64,000 nt of DNA from Fodinibius roseus (GTDB lineage Bacteria > Bacteroidota > Rhodothermia > Balneolales > Balneolaceae). The translations under genes and the position numbers were made by a program. Below the pieces are notes generated by a model, which searched no databases, was not told the DNA's origin, and worked only from the letters and a program-made list of their open reading frames with translations. This document shows positions 9,547 through 37,250 of this stretch, one piece after another. The DNA lies in contig NZ_FQUS01000002.1 in NCBI RefSeq assembly GCF_900129315.1, positions 1 to 64,000 of the forward strand. The letters run 5' to 3'. How positions within the stretch are numbered: position 1 is the first letter of the stretch; each line of letters starts with the position of its first letter.

Positions 9547-9954
9547 ATGGATATGAAATATCTCGATCATATCGGCATAGCGGTGGCGGACCTCGAGGAG
9601 GCGATCGAGACCTATGAAAAGCTGCTTGGGGCGGAATGCTACAAGCGCGAGACGGTCGATCAGCAGCAGGTAGAGACCGCCTTTTTCCGTGCCGGAGAGT
9701 CCAAGGTAGAGCTTCTGGGAGCCACCGGCTCCGATTCGGTTATTGCCGGATATATTGCCAAAAAAGGCGAAGGCATGCACCATGTGGCTTTTGAAGTGGA
9801 GGATATCCGCGGCGAGATGGAGCGGCTGCGCGGGGAAGGCTTTAGCGTGCTCTCCGAAGAACCCAGCCGCGGGGCCGATAATAAACTGGTCGCTTTCGTG
9901 CATCCCAAAGACAATCACGGCGTGCTGGTGGAGCTGTGTGAGTCGCTTGATTGA
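9547..9954 (+). CDS. mce: methylmalonyl-CoA epimerase
   Basis: Interconverts (2R)- and (2S)-methylmalonyl-CoA in propionyl-CoA metabolism. The 135-aa VOC-fold protein has two beta-alpha-beta-beta-beta units. Metal-ligand candidates are H8 (LDHIGIAV), H78 or H79 (GMHHVAFEV) and E129 (VLVELCE). Length and motif spacing match the family. ATG 9547 and ATG 9553 are both possible; the latter gives MKYLDHIGIAV, closer to most homologues. It is 112 bp after serA, with the direct-repeat-like AATCCGGAATTC/AATCCGGGATCC text between them. Confidence 0.93.
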   Translation: MDMKYLDHIGIAVADLEEAIETYEKLLGAECYKRETVDQQQVETAFFRAGESKVELLGATGSDSVIAGYIAKKGEGMHHVAFEVEDIRGEMERLRGEGFSVLSEEPSRGADNKLVAFVHPKDNHGVLVELCESLD

Positions 9955-28061: not shown

Positions 28062-29426
28062 TTATGTTCTCCATTGGGTCGCTCTCCGGGCGACGGTAAA
28101 GCCCGACCTGATACAGTCGGGCACAGACACGCCGTGGCGAAAATTCCCGGACAGCAGCAGCCCCGGGTACTGCTCTTCGAGCATGCTCATGGCGGACAAA
28201 TACCGGTGGTATCCCACTTCATACTGGGGAATTGCGTGCTTCCAAAACCGGTGATGGGTGAAAACAGGATCTCCTTCCACCCCCAAAAGGGTATTGAGTT
28301 CCGGAAGCAGCAGTTCCGTAAGCTCGGCCCTGGATTTCCCGGCCAGGCCGGGCTGGCGTGCTCCGCCTACAAAGCAGGTGAGCAGGTGGTGCCGGTCGGG
28401 GGCGCGGCCGGGAAAGAGGGTAGAGGAAAAGAGCATTCCCAGCGCATGATGGTGTTCAACTTCCGGTATCAGCATGCCGAATCCGTTCAGGGAATGCCGC
28501 ACCTGCTCATGGGTAAATCCCAGGGCGATCACGCTTAAGGGTACATAAGGTATGTCGGTCAGCAGGTCGAAGAGGTCGGACTCAAATATTGGGGATAGCT
28601 TGTGAGACGGCACGGTTGAAATAAGGACCTCGTGTTTTGCCTGGAAAGCATGCCCCTCCTGCTTTCCGCTGATCGTCCAGTGAGCACTGGAACGGGTAGC
28701 GGCCTGAACCTCGCAGGAGGTCCGCACCGGCTGGTCCAGTGCCCGGGCCAGCGCCCGGGGAAGCATCTGGTTGCCTTCCGTGAAAGAGACCAGGGACTTG
28801 TCGGCCGGGGATGCTGATTTCTCTTTTTCTTTCTTTTTTTTGATGAGTCCTTTCAGCAGTGAACCATGGCGCTGTTCCATCTCCCACAGGTCAGCAAACG
28901 TATGCTTGACGGACAGCTTTTTGGGATCTCCGGCATAGACGCCTGAAACAAAGGGATTTATGCCATAATCCAGGGGTTCCTGGCCCAGCCGGCGCTGTAT
29001 GAAAGAGGCGATGGACTCGTCATCCGCATCAGAGGGAGCAATAAAGGGTTCTTTTAACAGGCGCAGCTTGGCACCGGCCGAAATCAACGGTGACTTGAGA
29101 AACGTACCGATGGAAGAGGGGAGGGCTACCGGGGTGTTGTTTTGGGCGATAAAGCGTCGCCGGGCTTCACGGTTGGCCCGGATTGTATCATCTGTGAGGC
29201 TGAGCTCCCGGAGCAAATCCCAGACCTGCTGCGATTTCACCATCAGAGTATTGGGTCCTTCTTCCACCAGCCATCCATCTTGCCGGACCGACTTGATCGC
29301 CCCGCCCACTTGATCGCTTTGTTCATAGACCGTAACGGAGATCCCTTCCTTCTGCAGGGCATAGGCGGTCGTCAATCCGGAGATGCCGGCACCTAATATA
29401 CCGGCAAATGTTTTTTTATTGGTCAT
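28062..29426 (-). CDS. hemG: oxygen-dependent protoporphyrinogen oxidase (HemY/HemG-type)
   Basis: FAD enzyme oxidising protoporphyrinogen (or coproporphyrinogen) IX in heme synthesis. 454 aa with the FAD-binding GAGISGLTTAYAL near 11-23, an acidic residue at VYEQSD (about 34-39) and the C-terminal GNFRHGVSVPDCIRSG region where the family closes the FAD site. A Lys-rich insert (LIKKKKEKEKSASPADKS, about 200-217) is not usual. Its start is 29 bp from a perfect inverted repeat shared with the divergent iron-binding lipoprotein gene, suggesting common control by metal. Confidence 0.9.
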   Translation of the reverse strand: MTNKKTFAGILGAGISGLTTAYALQKEGISVTVYEQSDQVGGAIKSVRQDGWLVEEGPNTLMVKSQQVWDLLRELSLTDDTIRANREARRRFIAQNNTPVALPSSIGTFLKSPLISAGAKLRLLKEPFIAPSDADDESIASFIQRRLGQEPLDYGINPFVSGVYAGDPKKLSVKHTFADLWEMEQRHGSLLKGLIKKKKEKEKSASPADKSLVSFTEGNQMLPRALARALDQPVRTSCEVQAATRSSAHWTISGKQEGHAFQAKHEVLISTVPSHKLSPIFESDLFDLLTDIPYVPLSVIALGFTHEQVRHSLNGFGMLIPEVEHHHALGMLFSSTLFPGRAPDRHHLLTCFVGGARQPGLAGKSRAELTELLLPELNTLLGVEGDPVFTHHRFWKHAIPQYEVGYHRYLSAMSMLEEQYPGLLLSGNFRHGVSVPDCIRSGFTVARRATQWRT

Positions 29427-29449
29427 TGTGGAATAAATTCAATACTTTC
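29419..29449 (+). promoter_or_regulatory. possible promoter of the iron-binding lipoprotein gene
   Basis: TTG at 29419-29421 and TACTTTCG at 29442-29449 resemble the Bacteroidota housekeeping promoter (TTG near -33, TAnnTTTG near -7), with a spacing of 20 bases that is slightly long. If real, the transcript would start near 29456, inside the operator. Weak evidence. Confidence 0.3.
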
Positions 29450-29455
29450 GTCCTA

Positions 29456-29480
29456 CTTACTTAGAATTGGTCTAAGTAAG
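29456..29480. promoter_or_regulatory. inverted-repeat operator between hemG and iron-binding lipoprotein
   Basis: Perfect 10-bp arms CTTACTTAGA (29456-29465) and TCTAAGTAAG (29471-29480) around ATTGG. The core TTAGA-N5-TCTAA recurs in altered form before the DUF4856 operon (36960-37017). The position between two iron/heme genes and the roughly 19-25 bp dyad size suggest a DtxR/Fur-superfamily repressor site (inference). It is not a classic Fur box. Confidence 0.65.
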
Positions 29481-29549
29481 CATTATAAGTGGAATGTCCA
29501 GCCAAGCCATAATACAGATATAATATAAATGTCAAATGAAGACTCAAGT

Positions 29550-30614
29550 ATGAACATAGTAAAAGAGCTATCAAAATTAGTGACCGGTCTGTTCGTCATT
29601 CTACTGATGAGTTCTTGCGGGGAAACCAGCAGCGACCAGCTGGTGGTCTATTCAGGGAGGAGCCAGGCGCTTGTTGAGCAGCTGGTGGCCGATTTTAAAG
29701 CGGAGACCGGCGTTGACATTGAAGTCCGGTATGGAAATGATGCGGAGCTGCTGGCCGTGCTCAGTGAAGAGGGGGATCAAAGTCCCGCTGATGTGTACTG
29801 GGCCAATACAACGGGAGCCCTCGCCAATGCCTCCCAGCAGGGAAGATTGGCGACGCTACCCGACACCCTGGCCAATAAACCTGATTCCTATACTGCGGCC
29901 TCGGGAGAATGGGTGCCGGTTACGGTCCGATTTCGTGTGCTGGCGTATAATCCTTCAGCAGTAGATGCTGATGATTTGCCTGATTCGGTGCTCGACCTCC
30001 CCGAAATGAATGAGCTTGATGGACGCATAGGATGGACGCCCACCTATTCCAGCTTTTATGATTTTATGACGACCATGCGCCTGAATGAAGGAGAAGATGA
30101 CGCACGTGAGTGGCTCAATGAGATGCAGGAGCTGAATCCCAAGGCTTATAGTTCAAATACACCAATGATACAGGCTATCCTGGGCGGAGAAATAGACGTG
30201 GGACTGACAAATCATTATTATGTAATTCAGACAAAATACGGGGGGAAAGAAGGTTATTTTGAAGATCACGAACACTACGGGGAAGAAGGCCCGGATCCCG
30301 ACGCCAATATTGAGACCTATCATTTTGCCGAGGGAGATATCGGTAATTTGGCGCTGGTAACCGGGGCTTCGGTGCTGCAGACGGCTGATCATCCGGAGTT
30401 AGGCCACCGGTTCCTGGACTTCCTGCTTTCAAAAAAGGCCCAGGAGTATGCGGCCACATCCGTCAATGAATATCCGGTTATGGACAATGTAACGCTTCCG
30501 GATTATATGCTGGATGCTGAAAAAGCTATACGGTTAAGTCCCGATTATGACTACGAGCAGCTGCAGCAGCTGGAGGGGACGCTTAATCTCTTGCGTGAAG
30601 CAGGAATTATTTGA
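29550..30614 (+). CDS. iron(III) ABC transporter substrate-binding lipoprotein
   Basis: Captures ferric iron outside the cytoplasmic membrane for an ABC importer. From ATG 29550 the product is 354 aa with a lipoprotein signal (VILLMSSC, lipidated Cys at residue 23). The mature part matches FbpA/AfuA-type proteins: LVVYSGRSQALVEQLVADF, a PADVYWANTTGAL loop, NHYYVIQTKYGG with paired tyrosines suited to iron binding, and AKKAQEYAA-like C-terminal text. An ATG at 29529 adds SNEDSS before the signal and is less likely. No permease or ATPase gene follows, so the partner must be elsewhere. A terminator follows at once. Confidence 0.88.
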   Translation: MNIVKELSKLVTGLFVILLMSSCGETSSDQLVVYSGRSQALVEQLVADFKAETGVDIEVRYGNDAELLAVLSEEGDQSPADVYWANTTGALANASQQGRLATLPDTLANKPDSYTAASGEWVPVTVRFRVLAYNPSAVDADDLPDSVLDLPEMNELDGRIGWTPTYSSFYDFMTTMRLNEGEDDAREWLNEMQELNPKAYSSNTPMIQAILGGEIDVGLTNHYYVIQTKYGGKEGYFEDHEHYGEEGPDPDANIETYHFAEGDIGNLALVTGASVLQTADHPELGHRFLDFLLSKKAQEYAATSVNEYPVMDNVTLPDYMLDAEKAIRLSPDYDYEQLQQLEGTLNLLREAGII

Positions 30615-30632: not shown

Positions 30633-30663
30633 ATCCCGCATTTATAGTGCGGGATTTCTTTTA
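30633..30663 (+). terminator. terminator after the iron-binding lipoprotein gene
   Basis: 8-bp stem ATCCCGCA (30633-30640) and TGCGGGAT (30648-30655) with a 7-base loop, followed by TTCTTTT. It lies 19 bases after the stop. Confidence 0.82.
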
Positions 30664-30683: not shown

Positions 30684-33173
30684 CTAAATTTGAATGCCCG
30701 CGGTAATATAAAAATTACGGATTTTGGCGGGAATAATACCCGGTCCGGGATAGCCGGTAGCACGGCGTGTAAAGTATTTTTCATTCGTCAGATTATTGAT
30801 TCCGCCTTCCAGGGTAAACCGATCGAAACGGTATTTTGCGGATAGATCCATCACCTTGTAGGAGGGGATTATTCCCTCAATAGCCGTTGGCGTTTGCCGG
30901 GCATTCGTAGCGTCGGAAAAATGCTCAGCCACATAGCTGAACTGATAAGAAGCCTCAAAGCTTCCTTGTGAAAATGTGAGACCGGTTTTGAAGTTAAAAG
31001 GGGGAACGAGTTCTACGTCATTTCCTTCGATACCCGGTTCATCCGTATTGGTATAGGTGGCTTCGATGAGTGACAAGTTGGTAAAAAGCGAAAGTCTCGC
31101 TTTGCTGTTATACCCCATAAGGGTAAAAAGGTCCGCTTCTGCAAAGGACTCGATCCCGTAGATGCCGGCATCCGCTATGTTAGTTCGATAGCGAAAGGTG
31201 CGTTCGACCAGATTGTTGAATTTGGGGTTGGGTTCGGTGCGCAACACGGTGCCGATACGATCTTCATAGGAAAGATGAAAAGCAGTCAAATCATAGCTGA
31301 ACAGCTTACCAACCTGTCCGCGAATACCGAGATCCACATTGAAACCGCGCTCATCCTGAATATCGGGATCTACTTCGAGACTGCCTATATCAACGCGGAT
31401 GTCGTTGAAGTTGATGGCCCGGTAGTTTTGTGAAAAGTTGCCATATATTTCGAGCTGTCTGCCGGGACGATAACTCGATCCTATGCCAAAAAACAGAAAA
31501 GATCGATCCCTGCTCCGCTGCTCTGCAATGCGCTCATCCACCAAAATGTTACCAGCCAGATCACGGACGATATTTCGGTAGTACCCTTCAGCTTCGGTCC
31601 TGATATATTCGAAGCGGGCGCCGGGTGTAATACTGAATTTGGGCGTAATATTAAAAATATTTTCTACGAATACTGACCGGTTTTGACTCGGCAAGTCAAA
31701 ATCAGAGCCCGTTACGTTATCCGGATTCAGGTAGCGAAACGTGGGATCGCTGCCATCTCCGCCGCTGCCCTGCCGCCGGTGCGTATAGCCGTTATAGAAT
31801 CGCGTACCTGCTAAGATGACCGAAATTCCGTCGATAAAGTGATAACGGTGAATCAGGCGGGTTTCGTTGCCCCAGTTCTCAAAATCATCTTTAAGCAGGT
31901 TTCGTTTTCCGCCATGATCGAGCCGGTCGATGCGCTGGAGGTTTCCGAGGGCATCACGTCCCCCGAGCAACCCGAAAAAACGGGTATTGAGCCTGGTCAT
32001 GCTGCTGAAGTCGTAATCGGCTTTTAGCGCAAAAAGATTCCAGTTAACGCGGAACCAATTACGATCGCGATTCGACTGACTGGGATCATCCCGGAACTGG
32101 GCGTCGGTCAGTCCCCCGGGCTGATGCGCCAGGTAATACATGTAGGTATATTCTGGCGTGATGGTAAGATCTGGTGTGAGATCGAGATCGAACGAGAGAT
32201 ATGCGGTGTGCTGATCCAGCTCGGCGTTCGGCCGCCAGCCGTCGCTGGTTTTGTATTGATAAAACCCGTAGTAGCCTATCTCATCAATGGTACCGCCCAC
32301 GCTGTTAAAGGAGTTGAATAATCCGAAGGAGCCATACGACTGTTTACTGCTGAACCGGAAAGGGGTGTTATCGGGACCATCTTTAAATTCAAAATTGAGC
32401 ATACCTCCAAACTGCGTGCCGTACTGCAGCGACGCGGCCCCGCGTATGATTTCAATTCGTTCAAGAGCCTGGACTGGGGGGGTGTAATAGCTTTCGGGAT
32501 AGCCAAGCGCATCGGCGGCAATATCGTATCCATTTTGGCGGGTGTTGAAGTTAGAATTGCGCTTGGGACTCAGGCCACGTCCCCCTACGCTGGTTTGGAC
32601 CCCTGCATCATCGGTTTGCCAGATATTAAGTCCCGGCACTTTGGCGTATACCTGACGGCTGTTGTTTGTCGCTTTATTGACCGTCATATCATCGATGACG
32701 AGCACCTCATTCTTTTTGCTCTCGTTGATGGTAACACCTTCAACAGATCGCAACCGGGTAATACCACTTGTACGCTCCGTTTGCCCGCCAATAACAACCT
32801 CATCCATCATATCTTCAAATTTCTCAAGCTTAAAATTTTGGACGGCATCCCTGTGATCAATCGTAATTTGTTTGGACTGCGTCCGCTTGCCCGGATAGTA
32901 GGCTATGAGCTGGTAGGGACCGGCCGATACATTTTTAATGGAATATCTACCGTTACGGTTCGTCACCGTTTTGGATTCATAGTTAAGCGGTATGGTGCGG
33001 TCGCTGCTTTGCGGCTGCTCCTCCGCAAGATATATGCTGACATTTTCAACAGGAGTTCCACTTTGGTCTGTTACGGTACCCGACAAGGTATACTGCTGGG
33101 CTAACGCCATATCGATATCGGTACAAAAAAAGATCAAGAGGATGACCAGGAAGGAGAATGTGCGATACTTCAT
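30684..33173 (-). CDS. TonB-dependent siderophore receptor, FecA-like
   Basis: Outer-membrane importer, probably for ferric citrate or a similar chelate. The product of about 829 aa has a signal peptide, a carboxypeptidase-regulatory-like domain (YTLSGTVTDQSGTPVENVSI, about 27-100), a plug domain with the TonB-box region and ERIEIIRGAASLQYGTQFGG (about 235-255), then a 22-strand barrel ending in IRNFYITAGIQI. The YTPPVQALERIEIIRG segment is typical of FecA (COG4772). ATG 33173 is chosen; a TTG eight codons upstream would abut the HTTM stop. It is the last gene of the DUF4856-imelysin-HTTM operon. Confidence 0.92.
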   Translation of the reverse strand: MKYRTFSFLVILLIFFCTDIDMALAQQYTLSGTVTDQSGTPVENVSIYLAEEQPQSSDRTIPLNYESKTVTNRNGRYSIKNVSAGPYQLIAYYPGKRTQSKQITIDHRDAVQNFKLEKFEDMMDEVVIGGQTERTSGITRLRSVEGVTINESKKNEVLVIDDMTVNKATNNSRQVYAKVPGLNIWQTDDAGVQTSVGGRGLSPKRNSNFNTRQNGYDIAADALGYPESYYTPPVQALERIEIIRGAASLQYGTQFGGMLNFEFKDGPDNTPFRFSSKQSYGSFGLFNSFNSVGGTIDEIGYYGFYQYKTSDGWRPNAELDQHTAYLSFDLDLTPDLTITPEYTYMYYLAHQPGGLTDAQFRDDPSQSNRDRNWFRVNWNLFALKADYDFSSMTRLNTRFFGLLGGRDALGNLQRIDRLDHGGKRNLLKDDFENWGNETRLIHRYHFIDGISVILAGTRFYNGYTHRRQGSGGDGSDPTFRYLNPDNVTGSDFDLPSQNRSVFVENIFNITPKFSITPGARFEYIRTEAEGYYRNIVRDLAGNILVDERIAEQRSRDRSFLFFGIGSSYRPGRQLEIYGNFSQNYRAINFNDIRVDIGSLEVDPDIQDERGFNVDLGIRGQVGKLFSYDLTAFHLSYEDRIGTVLRTEPNPKFNNLVERTFRYRTNIADAGIYGIESFAEADLFTLMGYNSKARLSLFTNLSLIEATYTNTDEPGIEGNDVELVPPFNFKTGLTFSQGSFEASYQFSYVAEHFSDATNARQTPTAIEGIIPSYKVMDLSAKYRFDRFTLEGGINNLTNEKYFTRRATGYPGPGIIPAKIRNFYITAGIQI

Positions 33174-33193
33174 TATTAATGCTGACTTCTGAA

Positions 33194-34576
33194 TCAATTT
33201 TGTTGATTTTCGTTAAAAGGGAGAATCCAGTTTTTATGAGTAAATCCGCGTTCCTGTTTGGTTAGGTCTGCCTTGGGATCAATCAGAAGCTGACTTCGAC
33301 GCCCGTTGAGCGTTACATAAGTTTCAGCCGTTATTTTGACATCGTTAATACCCTGCTTGCGATACTTTTCTTCAAGATGATGGGCAAACTGGAGAATCAT
33401 ATCTGGCTGGGTGGACATCATTTTTTCCTGGTTGGGCGTCAGGTAGTCATAGTTTTGAACCTGCCAGCGGCGATCACTCTCCGGTTCTTTAATGTGAAAA
33501 GTAATGTGTCCCGCTTTTTCCATCAGCATAACGCGCCAGGAGAAACGGTATCCCTGCTCCGTCCAGAACAGGTTGCCGGGATATAAGGCAAAACGCAGCG
33601 GCAGCAAAAGCTGGAGTATAAAATGAATGCCGAGAATCCCGGCTATAATGGTATTACTGCTTTTGCTGAACTGAAAATGTTTCTGCTGGCTCGGGATTGA
33701 GGCTGAAAATGATAATGGCAGATACCTTTTCAGGCCGGATACAGCTGTAATAATCTTTTTGTGAAAATCGGCAGGAAAAAAAATGAGCGTGCATAAAATC
33801 ATGATAAAGGGAAACATTCCGATCTGGAACAGGAAATAGGTCATCATGTGGAAGATGATAACCGTTATGTAGGCAAAAAAGCGGGTGGGCTTCCAGAGCA
33901 GAAAGAAGGCAATAGTGAGATCATAAACCGCACCGGCCCAGCTGAAAATGTAGGCGGTGGAAGTATATTCCAGCAGGGGACCAATAATCGGGAGGTCGGC
34001 CCTGGCGGGCAGCCAGATCCGCATGGGCATGGCGTTGATCAGCCAGTCTGGATTTAGTTTGGCCGCCCCGGCAAAAAAGTAAACGAGCCCGAGCTGTAGT
34101 TTGAATATGTTGATGGTCCAGGCCGCCACGTATTCCCTGCGAATAGCGGGCTTGCGAAGCACATCCAGCGAGAAACTACGGTTGGCCGGAACCCATATCA
34201 GCAGAAAGCTGATAATGCTTACAAAATAATAGTGGTTGAGATAGTTGGTTTTGTCGATGAGCTCCACATACGTAAAGCACAGGAAAAAAAGGATGATTCC
34301 GATGCGGTAACAGCAGCCCAGCATGACCGACAGGGCCGCGAGTCCCATTACCAAAAAAAGCAGGTACATCCCGGTTTCACCCGGCGGAGTAACCCAGTCA
34401 AAGCCGTAGTAGGTGAAGAAATAGTCCGGTTCTACGTACAGCTCATAGATCCACCCCTTGAGCGCAAAGCGGATGACGCTCACCAGCATGATGAATCCGA
34501 AGAGGAAACGGAAAACCGCCAGGGGAGCAATGGAAACCTGCGATGTAATATGCTTTTTTACGGCCTCCGGGATCAT
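33194..34576 (-). CDS. HTTM-domain membrane protein (vitamin K gamma-carboxylase-like)
   Basis: 460 aa with at least eight transmembrane helices between about 20 and 330, followed by a soluble C-terminal part of about 130 residues. The family (HTTM) shares a fold with vitamin K-dependent gamma-carboxylase; bacterial members have no settled activity. The pattern PLAVFRFLFGFIMLVSVIRF near the N-terminus and the FYTYYGFDWV-like lumenal segment are typical. In Bacteroidota it commonly sits between imelysin and TonB receptor genes, as here. It starts 6 bp after the imelysin stop, so they are coupled. Confidence 0.85.
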   Translation of the reverse strand: MIPEAVKKHITSQVSIAPLAVFRFLFGFIMLVSVIRFALKGWIYELYVEPDYFFTYYGFDWVTPPGETGMYLLFLVMGLAALSVMLGCCYRIGIILFFLCFTYVELIDKTNYLNHYYFVSIISFLLIWVPANRSFSLDVLRKPAIRREYVAAWTINIFKLQLGLVYFFAGAAKLNPDWLINAMPMRIWLPARADLPIIGPLLEYTSTAYIFSWAGAVYDLTIAFFLLWKPTRFFAYITVIIFHMMTYFLFQIGMFPFIMILCTLIFFPADFHKKIITAVSGLKRYLPLSFSASIPSQQKHFQFSKSSNTIIAGILGIHFILQLLLPLRFALYPGNLFWTEQGYRFSWRVMLMEKAGHITFHIKEPESDRRWQVQNYDYLTPNQEKMMSTQPDMILQFAHHLEEKYRKQGINDVKITAETYVTLNGRRSQLLIDPKADLTKQERGFTHKNWILPFNENQQN

Positions 34577-34582
34577 GGTCTG

Positions 34583-35710
34583 TTAATCACCGTCGTTGTC
34601 TTGGTAGGTAATTGTAATACCCAGTGCTGAAGTCATATCGGCTTTCAGCATTGAAACGATGGCGTGAAGTTCTTCAAAAGAAGTTAACACCGCTTCATTA
34701 TTATTTTCGATTTGCTGCGAAAGCGGATCGCTGAGCTGTTCAAGCGCTGACTGTGCTTCGTCAATCTGCGACTTGATATCATCAGTAAGCTCTTCCGTAT
34801 CAAAATCCACCCTGTTATTAATGGCCAAAAGGTTATCGTCCAGCCCTTTGCCGCCGGCCCCGGTAAAAATGTGCTCTATCTGATTCAGGTTTGCGATCGC
34901 CAGTTCTGCCGAATATCCGCCGTAATAGGCCTCAACCGCTACAGGGCGTGGGGTACCGGCACTTTTAATACCGGATGGAATGCCTATTTTACCATCGCGC
35001 AGGAATCGCTCGTAATGGCGTACATAGTGGTTGACAAGCCTACCCAGCGAGCTTCCCTTATCTGTTCCGGCATTTTCTTCACTCAAAAACATCCCGATAT
35101 AGTCGCCGCCCGAAGGCTGCCATTCGCCGGCAGCCGTGTCGATCTTATCTTTTACAAACGCGATGTTATCGAGGAGGTACTTCATGCGATTTTCGGCTTC
35201 AGCACCGGTTGTGTACCGGGCCAATATCTCTTCATTGCTGTCGGCTACGCCGTGGAGCAAGTAACCCAGGGCAGGTAACCCCGCTATATCTTGGTTATCA
35301 ATACCACCAAAAGAGTAATCGCCGGAAGAGATATTGTCATCCACTTTATCGGTATCTACCGGATAGGTGTTTATAGATGATCGCAACAGAACAGACTCTG
35401 CCGGGCCAAATTGAAATGGGCTGACCTCCTGCCAGGCTAATCGAGCGTCTTTTAAAGCCGTCTGTACATTTTCCAGCTGCTCTGGCGTCGATTCATTTTC
35501 AAAATTTTCTGCTGCAGTTTGTAAGTCTTCAACTGCGGTTTGCATTTCCTCGAAGGACGGCAAAATAATATTGTTGCCGTAGTTGCTGAGCATCTCGGAT
35601 CGATCAAAATTAATTTGTTGATCCGAGGATGTGCTGTTACTGCATGCCGCAAACAATATCGCGAGTAGCAGTATAGCGGAAAAATAAGTGACTCTTGCGT
35701 GTGCCATCAT
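34583..35710 (-). CDS. imelysin-family lipoprotein
   Basis: Iron-associated surface or periplasmic protein (family of IrpA, EfeO M75 domain, and Psychrobacter ICMP). 375 aa with a lipobox (LLAILFAAC, Cys at about 22) and two helical bundle halves. The segment FGPAESVLLRSSINTYPVDT (about 104-123) and AGLPALGYLLHG (about 143-154) are family landmarks. The GxHxxE motif of classical imelysins is not visible, and GLPALE is GLPALG here, which puts it in the divergent, probably non-peptidase group. Second gene of the iron operon, 76 bp after DUF4856. Confidence 0.88.
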   Translation of the reverse strand: MMAHARVTYFSAILLLAILFAACSNSTSSDQQINFDRSEMLSNYGNNIILPSFEEMQTAVEDLQTAAENFENESTPEQLENVQTALKDARLAWQEVSPFQFGPAESVLLRSSINTYPVDTDKVDDNISSGDYSFGGIDNQDIAGLPALGYLLHGVADSNEEILARYTTGAEAENRMKYLLDNIAFVKDKIDTAAGEWQPSGGDYIGMFLSEENAGTDKGSSLGRLVNHYVRHYERFLRDGKIGIPSGIKSAGTPRPVAVEAYYGGYSAELAIANLNQIEHIFTGAGGKGLDDNLLAINNRVDFDTEELTDDIKSQIDEAQSALEQLSDPLSQQIENNNEAVLTSFEELHAIVSMLKADMTSALGITITYQDNDGD

Positions 35711-35786
35711 GGGAAGCGTGTTTTTAAATGAACCGAACCGTGCCGGAGGTATGCCGGCAAAGTTCGGGTCCGTGGTTCAATACATC

Positions 35787-36944
35787 TTACAGTTGGTCTT
35801 GAACGGGCTCAAGATCGGGATAAGTATCTACGAGCGTAGACTTGGCGTTATTAAGTCCGTCTAAAGTAACATTCCAGAAGCTGCCATTTTCGCCGAAATC
35901 GCTATTGAGGATTTGGTCGATTTGGCCGGGCGTAATGGTTTTATCGGGATTGTACTTCAGTGCATTGACAAAAGCCCAGGCTTCCGAAAGCGCATGAAAT
36001 GCTTCCCCCTGATTCCCTTCATTCCAATGTGAAAGCGTACTGTTTATATAGTGAACGGCGGTAGCTGCCGCCAGCAACTCCAGGTTTTCATACAGCACCT
36101 CAACTTGTTGTTCAAGTTTGCCCTGGTTGTCGTTGATAATAGCCGTACGTCCCTGAATGAAGGCTTCCATAATGGTATCGTTGAATCCAAGCTGGGGATC
36201 TGATCCATTGGAATATTTGCTCCAGAAGCGAAGCTCACCGGTGCGTGAATCCGGCCAATCCGACTCAAAATCCACGGGGGCGTCGAAATAGCCGTAGGCT
36301 TCATCAAAGTGATGTTCCTTGTCGGTGTAATTGGTTCCTTCCCGGAGTGCCTCATTTTCAACATTCGGACCGATGCGATCGTTGGTTAGATAGACGTTAA
36401 AAATTTGATTATAGAAGACAGCGCCCATCAAGCCTTTTTCGACCAGCTGGGTAAATTCCCGGCCTTTGGCATCCACCAGGATATAGCCATCTCCACGCCG
36501 CATCAGGCCCGGAACGCCCTCATCTGCTTCGCCGTTTTCACTGGCAGCTGCTGCTTTAGCAAAAAAGTCTTCAAATAGATTTTCGTCCAGATCCGGACCA
36601 AAGGTTTTGTTCTTAAGCTGCCGCTCGGAGGTAAAGGTGAAGTGCCCGCCACCGTTTCCGTCTGTATTTTCGAACATATCGAGGAGTGCCTGTTCGGAAA
36701 TCGTTTCACCGTCGTGCGCCGTTGCAATGTATGCTTTCATTGCTTCTACCATATCCAGACGATCGGTCTGACCGGGATAGGCGACGGTAGACTCACCATT
36801 GCGGGTGAATTCATAAGTTTCGGGCGGCTCAATAGCATTCTCATCGTTTTTATCATTGCTGTTACTGATGTCACAGCCAGAAACCATCAGGGAAAGAACG
36901 AGAGCAAAAGCAGGTAATAGAAAAGGTCTTGATGTTCGGAGCAT
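35787..36944 (-). CDS. DUF4856 lipoprotein
   Basis: 385-aa lipoprotein (lipobox LVSGC, Cys at about 24) of the DUF4856 family, found next to imelysin genes in Bacteroidota. The sequence opens with an acidic linker, then YEFTRNGESTVAYPGQTDRL, the usual start of the domain, and is mostly helical to the end (LNNAKSTLVDTYPDLEPVQ). Function is not known; the context suggests iron or heme capture at the cell surface. First gene of the operon, behind two tandem operator-like sites. Confidence 0.85.
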   Translation of the reverse strand: MLRTSRPFLLPAFALVLSLMVSGCDISNSNDKNDENAIEPPETYEFTRNGESTVAYPGQTDRLDMVEAMKAYIATAHDGETISEQALLDMFENTDGNGGGHFTFTSERQLKNKTFGPDLDENLFEDFFAKAAAASENGEADEGVPGLMRRGDGYILVDAKGREFTQLVEKGLMGAVFYNQIFNVYLTNDRIGPNVENEALREGTNYTDKEHHFDEAYGYFDAPVDFESDWPDSRTGELRFWSKYSNGSDPQLGFNDTIMEAFIQGRTAIINDNQGKLEQQVEVLYENLELLAAATAVHYINSTLSHWNEGNQGEAFHALSEAWAFVNALKYNPDKTITPGQIDQILNSDFGENGSFWNVTLDGLNNAKSTLVDTYPDLEPVQDQL

Positions 36945-37250
36945 AGTTCTTATTCTTATTTATATTAAATCTAATTAATAGGCGGGAATATAATAACTAT
37001 GTAGATTAGTTCTAAATAATAGGCGGTATTTTTTAGTTCCCCCGGTAAAGCGATGAAATGGTTTTTTTTTCACTATGTTTCACCGGTCGACTGTTTTTCC
37101 GGACGCCTTTCCTGATCAGGGCAACCTGCCGAAAGCAGGCAGTAGAAAACCGTTCGTGATAGAGGTGAGAGCAGGGCCCGAAAGTAAAAGGCAGGCAGAT
37201 CATTCCCGGATAAGGTGTGAAAATGTGCAAAGCTAAAGACTATGTTTAGC
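36945..37250. other. intergenic region upstream of the iron operon
   Basis: 306 bp. The left part (36945-37030) is AT-rich and holds the iron operon promoter and the repeated operator sites. The right part (37040-37250) is GC-richer with no clear gene; AGCTAAA (37231-37237) and TTTAGCT (37245-37251) form a 7-bp hairpin at the stop of the SGNH hydrolase gene, possibly a weak terminator on the minus strand. Confidence 0.45.
36960..37029 (-). promoter_or_regulatory. two tandem operator-like sites before the iron operon
   Basis: Site 1 is TTATA-TTAAA-TCTAA (36960-36974) and site 2 is GTAGA-TTAGT-TCTAA (37001-37015); each differs by one base from TTAGA-N5-TCTAA. Both are the start of a 19-bp direct repeat, TCTAATTAATAGGCGGGAA (36970-36988) and TCTAAATAATAGGCGGTAT (37011-37029), with 16 matches, 41 bp apart, close to four helical turns. 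Cooperative repressor binding is a reasonable inference. Confidence 0.55.

What the first reader, a model, noticed from the sequence alone, without database searches (positions are those of the whole stretch)
30684..36944. DUF4856-imelysin-HTTM-FecA-like operon as an uncharacterised iron uptake system
Four exported or membrane proteins in one coupled transcript, with iron-type operators and a facing ferric-iron lipoprotein gene. The roles of DUF4856 and the HTTM carboxylase-like protein are unknown. One idea is that HTTM modifies a surface lipoprotein (for example gamma-carboxylation of acidic residues in DUF4856 or imelysin) to make a metal-binding surface.
Basis: partly seen in the sequence, partly recalled or inferred. 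Interest (0 to 1): 0.6.

Follow-up and report, generated by a model that had tools for sequence, protein, structure and literature searches.

The report
Iron operon with vitamin-K-carboxylase-like enzyme
Many bacteria of the Bacteroidota group keep the same four-gene iron-uptake operon, which pairs two probable iron-binding surface proteins and an outer-membrane receptor with a membrane enzyme whose catalytic centre matches the human vitamin K-dependent carboxylase, so these bacteria may chemically modify their own iron-binding proteins.

Summary
DUF4856, imelysin, HTTM and TonB-receptor genes lie head to tail at 30684-36944 (- strand). The same order is kept in 48 of 64 HTTM/VKGC loci of 247 genomes across the phylum (44 with DUF4856 detected) and in 73 of 80 named loci. 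A palindrome TTTAGAnnnnnTCTAAA lies upstream (at most 1 mismatch in 84 of 117 operons, 0.5% of shuffles). In this genome the same core sits before SufB, ferrochelatase, an ABC permease, two TonB receptors and protoporphyrinogen oxidase. It is an iron-regulon operon.

HTTM is a full-length homologue of human gamma-glutamyl carboxylase. The base K218 and the substrate-pocket residues N159 and H160 are invariant in 126 of 126 operon copies.

New point: every imelysin next to HTTM ends exactly in Asp-Gly-Asp. The tail marks the wider IPPA imelysin family (PDB 3pf0 ends in it) and also occurs beside a di-haem peroxidase, so it is not an HTTM-specific tag. HTTM occupies the peroxidase's place; a Persicobacter plasmid has both.

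Most likely: an imelysin-type iron system in which a menaquinol-dependent carboxylase-like enzyme replaces the peroxidase and modifies a co-exported lipoprotein. Reaction and target are inferred. No HTTM-specific invariant Glu exists; VKOR does not co-occur.

The parts
37000..37016 (.). iron-regulon-type operator, TGTAGATTAGTTCTAAA (1 mismatch to TTTAGAnnnnnTCTAAA)
   Evidence: at most 1 mismatch upstream of 84/117 orthologous operons; 0.5% of shuffles
35787..36944 (-). DUF4856 lipoprotein (385 aa, lipobox C24), probable iron-binding protein
   Evidence: weak reproducible match to FEA1-related lipoprotein; AF2 pLDDT 87.6, no PDB fold match; K170, Y244, E321 near-invariant
34583..35710 (-). imelysin lipoprotein (375 aa, lipobox C23) of the IPPA/PA4372 (GxxxxE) type
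   Evidence: AF2 model pLDDT 91, TM 0.80 (target-normalised) to PDB 3pf0
34586..34594 (-). codons of the C-terminal Asp-Gly-Asp tail (D373-G374-D375)
   Evidence: present in every imelysin next to HTTM
33194..34576 (-). HTTM / vitamin K-dependent gamma-carboxylase-type membrane enzyme (460 aa); catalytic base K173 (human K218), H115 (H160), N114 (N159)
30684..33197 (-). TonB-dependent receptor with N-terminal CarboxypepD_reg domain (ORF from TTG 33197; ATG at 33170)
30633..30663 (.). intrinsic-terminator-like inverted repeat between the convergent operon and solute-binding protein gene
   Evidence: read directly in sequence: ATCCCGCA-tttatag-TGCGGGAT-TTCTTTT
29529..30614 (+). neighbour, not conserved part: extracellular solute-binding lipoprotein (FbpA-like by inference)
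   Evidence: next to the operon only in the same genus
29460..29476 (.). same operator between divergent PPOX (28062-29426) and the solute-binding protein gene

Best explanation
This is an iron-repressed ferric-iron acquisition operon of the imelysin type. The TonB receptor brings an iron source across the outer membrane; the imelysin and DUF4856 lipoproteins bind and relay the iron. The HTTM protein is an active vitamin K-dependent-carboxylase-type enzyme of the inner membrane. It stands in the genetic place that a di-haem peroxidase (DHOR, EfeB-like) holds in other imelysin operons. It most probably uses menaquinol, O2 and CO2 on its periplasmic side to modify a carboxylate residue of the co-exported lipoprotein, imelysin first, before that protein is moved to the outer membrane; the modification tunes metal binding. 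Shown here: the operon, its conservation, the operator, the homology, the intact catalytic centre, the DGD tail and the swap with DHOR. Inferred: iron as ligand, HTTM chemistry, modification of a partner, and which residue. Sub-estimates: iron module 0.9; HTTM catalytically active with VKGC-like chemistry 0.6; a co-encoded lipoprotein is its substrate 0.45; the DGD tail is the site 0.2.
For: Conserved operon. Conserved operator, and the same operator at SufB, ferrochelatase, PPOX, an ABC permease and TonB receptors. HTTM aligns with human GGCX 61-505 at E about 1e-49. Residues assigned in PMC12589487 map as K218->K173, H160->H115, N159->N114, Y395->Y343, W223->W178, F286/F294/F299->F242/F250/F255, A214->A169, G259->G215. 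All but Y343 (Y 99, F 27) are invariant in 126 operon copies. The imelysin gene is directly upstream of HTTM (median gap 3 bp). The minimal Persicobacter cluster is IME-DHOR-IME(DGD)-HTTM without DUF4856 or receptor, and its HTTM branches first in the operon clade, support 100/100. In 247 genomes all 49 with a DGD imelysin also carry HTTM, including G108 where the two are about 1.8 Mb apart, and the 8 with only other imelysins lack it.
Against: No invariant Glu specific to HTTM-linked DUF4856 or imelysin. The DGD tail also occurs in Shinella, Sinorhizobium and Psychrobacter, with no HTTM in the cluster where it could be read; HTTM elsewhere in those genomes was not tested. VKOR does not co-occur with HTTM (12 shared genomes, 13.4 expected). 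Some GGCX residues differ in all or most operon copies (K217->A, mostly; N158->L, M401->V, N290->T). No GGCX-like C-terminal Arch domain (the match ends at human 505).
Confidence: 0.45

Rival explanations
1. HTTM does not modify proteins. It is a menaquinol/O2 redox partner that oxidises or reduces the iron handled by imelysin, the task proposed for the EfeB or DHOR peroxidase in related systems.
For: HTTM takes the slot next to the DGD imelysin that DHOR holds elsewhere. Xu et al. [quoted passage not shown] No DHOR lies in the four-gene operon. No substrate residue stands out.
Against: The residues that hold the substrate carboxylate in GGCX (N159, H160, Y395) are kept, N and H in 126/126; a pure iron redox enzyme would not need them. 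No haem or metal-binding motif is evident in HTTM. The Persicobacter cluster and L163 keep both enzymes, so the two are not simply interchangeable.
Confidence: 0.27
2. HTTM modifies something outside the two lipoproteins (the TonB receptor, a lipid or an unlinked protein); the lipoproteins act unmodified and the DGD tail is a plain docking or metal-holding tail.
For: HTTM-receptor adjacency is as tight as imelysin-HTTM adjacency (all 46 gaps below 10 bp). The DGD tail is independent of a nearby HTTM in Pseudomonadota. Orphan HTTM paralogues occur in other contexts.
Against: The Persicobacter cluster and its HTTM have no adjacent receptor.
Confidence: 0.18
3. The four genes are neighbours by chance.
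For: None found.
Against: Same order in 73/80 named loci and 48/64 sampled loci over several classes, with a conserved operator.
Confidence: 0.01

Closest known systems
EfeUOB and the PA4370-PA4373 / IPPA imelysin-peroxidase operons (Xu et al. 2011, PMC3143127)
   Same: Imelysin lipoproteins in an iron-regulated operon with one O2/peroxide-type enzyme; the window imelysin is of the IPPA (GxxxxE) type with the same fold and C-terminal DGD.
   Different: The di-haem peroxidase is replaced by HTTM; DUF4856 and a TonB receptor are added; no EfeU permease.
Human gamma-glutamyl carboxylase GGCX and the VKGC family
   Same: Transmembrane HTTM domain plus lumenal domain; base K218, H160, N159, Y395 and the vitamin K pocket conserved.
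   Different: Ends at human residue about 505, without the Arch region; K217, N158, M401, N290 changed; no known propeptide or Gla domain in the partners; no VKOR partner.
FEA1 / phytotransferrin ISIP2a of algae, via NCBIfam NF038033 FEA1-related lipoprotein
   Same: Weak but repeated profile match of the C-terminal half of DUF4856 (E down to 8e-8).
   Different: Far below the family cut-off (about 20-31 of 250 bits); iron binding untested; algal proteins not compared.
FecA ferric dicitrate receptor
   Same: TonB-dependent receptor fold; iron context.
   Different: Only 60.7 bits against a cut-off of 1100; carries a CarboxypepD_reg domain.

Membership tests
Vitamin K-dependent gamma-carboxylase (VKGC/GGCX) homologues | HTTM transmembrane domain followed by VKGC lumenal domain over full length | tested here: met
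   PF05090 5e-85 and PF22777 1.3e-58; GGCX 61-505 at about 1e-49
Vitamin K-dependent gamma-carboxylase (VKGC/GGCX) homologues | Catalytic base K218 and Glu-pocket residues N159, H160, Y395 | tested here: met
   K173, N114, H115 126/126; Y343 Y 99/126, F 27/126
Vitamin K-dependent gamma-carboxylase (VKGC/GGCX) homologues | Carboxylase activity on Glu with vitamin K hydroquinone | not testable with these tools
   needs biochemistry
Vitamin K-dependent gamma-carboxylase (VKGC/GGCX) homologues | Quinone epoxide recycling partner (VKOR) | tested here: not met
   no co-occurrence of PF07884 with PF22777 over 247 genomes (12 against 13.4 expected); the two VKOR hits of this genome lie in frames of over 500 aa
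Imelysin, IPPA/PA4372 family | Imelysin fold with the His of GxHxxE lost | tested here: met
   window GLPALG, no His; TM 0.80 to 3pf0
Imelysin, IPPA/PA4372 family | Partner di-haem peroxidase in the operon | tested here: not met
   no DHOR in the four-gene operon; present in related clusters L143-L145, L163, L297
FEA1 / phytotransferrin | Profile match above family cut-off | tested here: not met
   15/38 members match NF038033 weakly, none over cut-off
FecA | NF041676 equivalog cut-off | tested here: not met
   60.7 against 1100 bits
Iron-repressed regulon | Operator shared with known iron, haem and Fe-S genes and conserved upstream of orthologues | tested here: met
   regulator identity and iron response not tested

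The most novel reading that the evidence does not exclude
HTTM is a bacterial menaquinone-dependent carboxylase that turns acidic residues of the co-encoded imelysin and/or DUF4856 lipoproteins into malonate-type metal ligands (Gla or beta-carboxyaspartate, possibly in the invariant C-terminal DGD tail): a bacterial counterpart of vertebrate Gla chemistry, dedicated to iron uptake and spread through the Bacteroidota and relatives.
Probability: 0.28. Interest if true: 0.9.

Novelty: new variant of a known kind. Interest (0 to 1): 0.64.

Why it matters
Bacterial VKGC/HTTM proteins have, as far as I know, no assigned role. This operon gives one conserved family of them a physiological context (iron), a defined set of candidate partners and a catalytic centre that can be mutated, so the question 'what do bacterial vitamin K-type carboxylases do' becomes directly testable in culturable strains. 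The invariant C-terminal Asp-Gly-Asp of one whole imelysin family, including the solved structure 3pf0, is not mentioned in the main text of the structural paper on the family and gives a precise handle on how these iron proteins work. DUF4856 gains a function candidate.

Tried and rejected
1) DGD as an HTTM-specific recognition tag: attractive at first (46/46, then 77/77 imelysins next to HTTM), but the tail is also in DHOR clusters without a nearby HTTM and in PDB 3pf0, so it belongs to the imelysin family. 2) Poly-Asp lipoproteins next to divergent HTTMs in four loci of the window's family (L101, L102, L254, L256) as a second acidic-tail partner: the same lipoproteins carry such tails in many genomes away from HTTM, so dropped. 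3) VKOR as epoxide-recycling partner: no co-occurrence. 4) DUF4856 as an imelysin-like or known fold: no PDB match. 5) HTTM-specific conserved Glu as Gla site: none. 8) Paper searches for HTTM with imelysin and DUF4856 with imelysin: no paper in the library.
Full report
What is there. The four ORFs lie on the - strand exactly as reported: DUF4856 (35787-36944), imelysin (34583-35710), HTTM (33194-34576) and a TonB-dependent receptor (30684-33197). Profile matches are strong. DUF4856 and imelysin have lipobox cysteines. HTTM carries both the PF05090 transmembrane domain and the PF22777 VKGC lumenal domain. The receptor has a CarboxypepD_reg domain, plug and barrel. The genes are tightly spaced; across 46 relatives the imelysin-HTTM gap has a median of 3 bp and HTTM-receptor overlaps by a median of 23 bp (starts were taken mechanically).

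Is it more than chance. In 247 genomes of the phylum, 56 carry PF22777, with 64 matches. In 48 of these matches the imelysin lies directly upstream and the receptor directly downstream of HTTM, and in 44 DUF4856 was detected before them; several of the others are at contig ends. In 80 named loci from GTDB species the full order was found in 73: Fodinibius, Balneola, Pontibacter, Hymenobacter, Mucilaginibacter, Aquimarina, Polaribacter, Tenacibaculum, Thermochlorobacteriaceae, Kapaibacteria and others. The operon HTTMs form one clade with 100/100 support, separate from orphan HTTMs such as the ribF-linked ones of Flavobacteriia. The flanking solute-binding protein and protoporphyrinogen oxidase accompany the operon only in the same genus.

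Iron regulation. Upstream of DUF4856 lies TGTAGATTAGTTCTAAA (37000-37016). The consensus TTTAGAnnnnnTCTAAA is matched with at most one mismatch in 84 of 117 regions upstream of the operon, against 0.5% of single-base shuffles. In this genome the exact core TTAGAnnnnnTCTAA occurs 10 times, hardly more than a reversed control (7). Six of the ten lie 34-136 bp before a gene for SufB, ferrochelatase, an ABC permease with its ATPase, two TonB receptors, or (29460-29476) the divergent protoporphyrinogen oxidase and solute-binding protein. So the operator reading is right; the regulator (Fur or DtxR type) was not identified and the iron response was not measured.

HTTM is a VKGC-type enzyme with its catalytic centre intact. 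The protein aligns with human GGCX residues 61-505 (E about 1e-49). Using the residue assignments of the 2025 cryo-EM study (PMC12589487), the mapping gives K218->K173 (base that deprotonates the hydroquinone), H160->H115 and N159->N114 (hold the substrate carboxylate), Y395->Y343, W223->W178, F286/F294/F299->F242/F250/F255 (naphthoquinone pocket), A214->A169 and G259->G215 (isoprenyl tunnel). Over 126 operon HTTMs these are invariant except Y343 (99 Y, 27 F). Differences are also systematic: N158->L113, M401->V349 and N290->T246 in essentially all copies, K217 mostly Ala, and no Arch region. The enzyme is probably active, with altered substrate geometry.

The imelysin and its tail. The window imelysin is of the IPPA/PA4372 type described by Xu et al. 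2011 (PMC3143127): no His in the GxHxxE motif, and an AF2 model (pLDDT 91) with TM 0.80 to 3pf0. Every imelysin next to an HTTM ends exactly in Asp-Gly-Asp: 46/46 and two more in the phylum sample, 77/77 in the named loci, and all of the family-level loci L239-L252 (the samples partly overlap). Even the divergent L253, L255 and L257, where the preceding residues changed (DADGKNDGD), keep it. The tail is predicted to be flexible. Only one other ORF in 1854 ended so. None of the 16 imelysins of the canonical type did (L114-L129).

The tail is not an HTTM tag. Clusters imelysin - DHOR (PF06537 di-haem oxidoreductase) - imelysin exist in which the second imelysin ends in DGD without HTTM nearby: L143-L145 in this phylum, Shinella and Sinorhizobium plasmids, and PDB 3pf0 of Psychrobacter itself, whose chain ends ...FNSTDGD and whose last residues were disordered in the crystal. 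So the DGD end is a trait of the IPPA family, apparently not noted in the main text of Xu et al.. Within the 247-genome sample, however, all 49 genomes with a DGD imelysin have an HTTM and the 8 with only other imelysins have none. In G108 the HTTM (L078, inside the operon clade) and the DGD imelysin (L143) are unlinked.

HTTM sits where the peroxidase sits. In Persicobacter a plasmid cluster reads imelysin - DHOR - imelysin(DGD) - HTTM, and Agaribacillus L163 reads imelysin - DHOR - imelysin(DGD) - DUF4856 - imelysin(DGD) - HTTM - receptor. The Persicobacter HTTM is the first branch of the operon clade (the fork above it has only moderate support, 86/71). The simplest history is that HTTM joined an imelysin-DHOR operon, and later HTTM with one imelysin, DUF4856 and a receptor became the present unit without the peroxidase. 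Xu et al. [quoted passage not shown] this operon is a widespread exception with a different enzyme.

DUF4856. It has no PDB fold match (pLDDT 87.6). It gives a weak match in 15 of 38 members to NCBIfam 'FEA1-related lipoprotein'. Almost all weak hits of that model in the phylum are DUF4856 proteins, over the same stretch, but none passes the cut-off. FEA1/phytotransferrin proteins bind ferric iron (PMC7676907). K170, Y244, E321 and D214 are nearly invariant. This is a lead for ferric binding, not a membership.

How it most likely works. Shown: operon, operator, homologies, intact catalytic residues, tail and swap with DHOR. Inferred: the receptor imports an iron source; imelysin and DUF4856 hold iron; HTTM uses menaquinol (the quinone of these bacteria, from general knowledge), O2 and CO2 at the periplasmic face to carboxylate or otherwise modify a carboxylate of a co-exported lipoprotein. 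Against this stand the lack of an HTTM-specific conserved acidic residue, the lack of VKOR co-occurrence and the DGD tail without nearby HTTM. A redox role of HTTM on iron itself, in place of DHOR, is the main rival.

Verdict. A real, conserved, iron-regulated operon and a new variant of the imelysin iron systems. The carboxylase reading is plausible, testable and unproven.

Noticed in passing
window 28062-30614 and 29460-29476: Protoporphyrinogen oxidase and a solute-binding lipoprotein diverge from one shared iron-type operator; an ABC permease and ATPase elsewhere in the genome (L105 3783-6340) have the same operator, so the three may form one split transporter.
   Followed up: partly
L101 6102-6827, L102 6173-6889, L254 1941-2675, L256 7595-8305: Lipoproteins ending in 7-13 aspartates lie directly upstream of divergent orphan HTTM genes; similar tails occur away from HTTM in many genomes of the family.
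   Followed up: yes
L189 2398-3564: An imelysin paralogue in an HTTM operon whose sequence stops at ...VEITY, just before where the DGD tail would be; a natural tail-less copy beside a tailed one.
   Followed up: no
L069, L073, L082, L083, L085, L086, L095, L096: Orphan HTTM genes of Flavobacteriia directly follow a riboflavin-kinase-like gene (IGTFDGVHIGH motif) in a conserved place; their role is unknown and their pocket residues are closer to human GGCX (M401, N290 kept).
   Followed up: no
L231 480-3168 and L179 5950-9800: Reduced versions of the operon: DUF4856-HTTM without imelysin or receptor, and HTTM-receptor without either lipoprotein.
   Followed up: partly
G000 C10:6717-7103 and 9561-9932: Two VKOR domains of this genome lie in open frames of over 500 aa, not next to HTTM.
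   Followed up: no
L297 (Persicobacter psychrovividus plasmid pPP1): Imelysin - DHOR - imelysin(DGD) - HTTM cluster on a megaplasmid, which links the two kinds of operon.
   Followed up: yes
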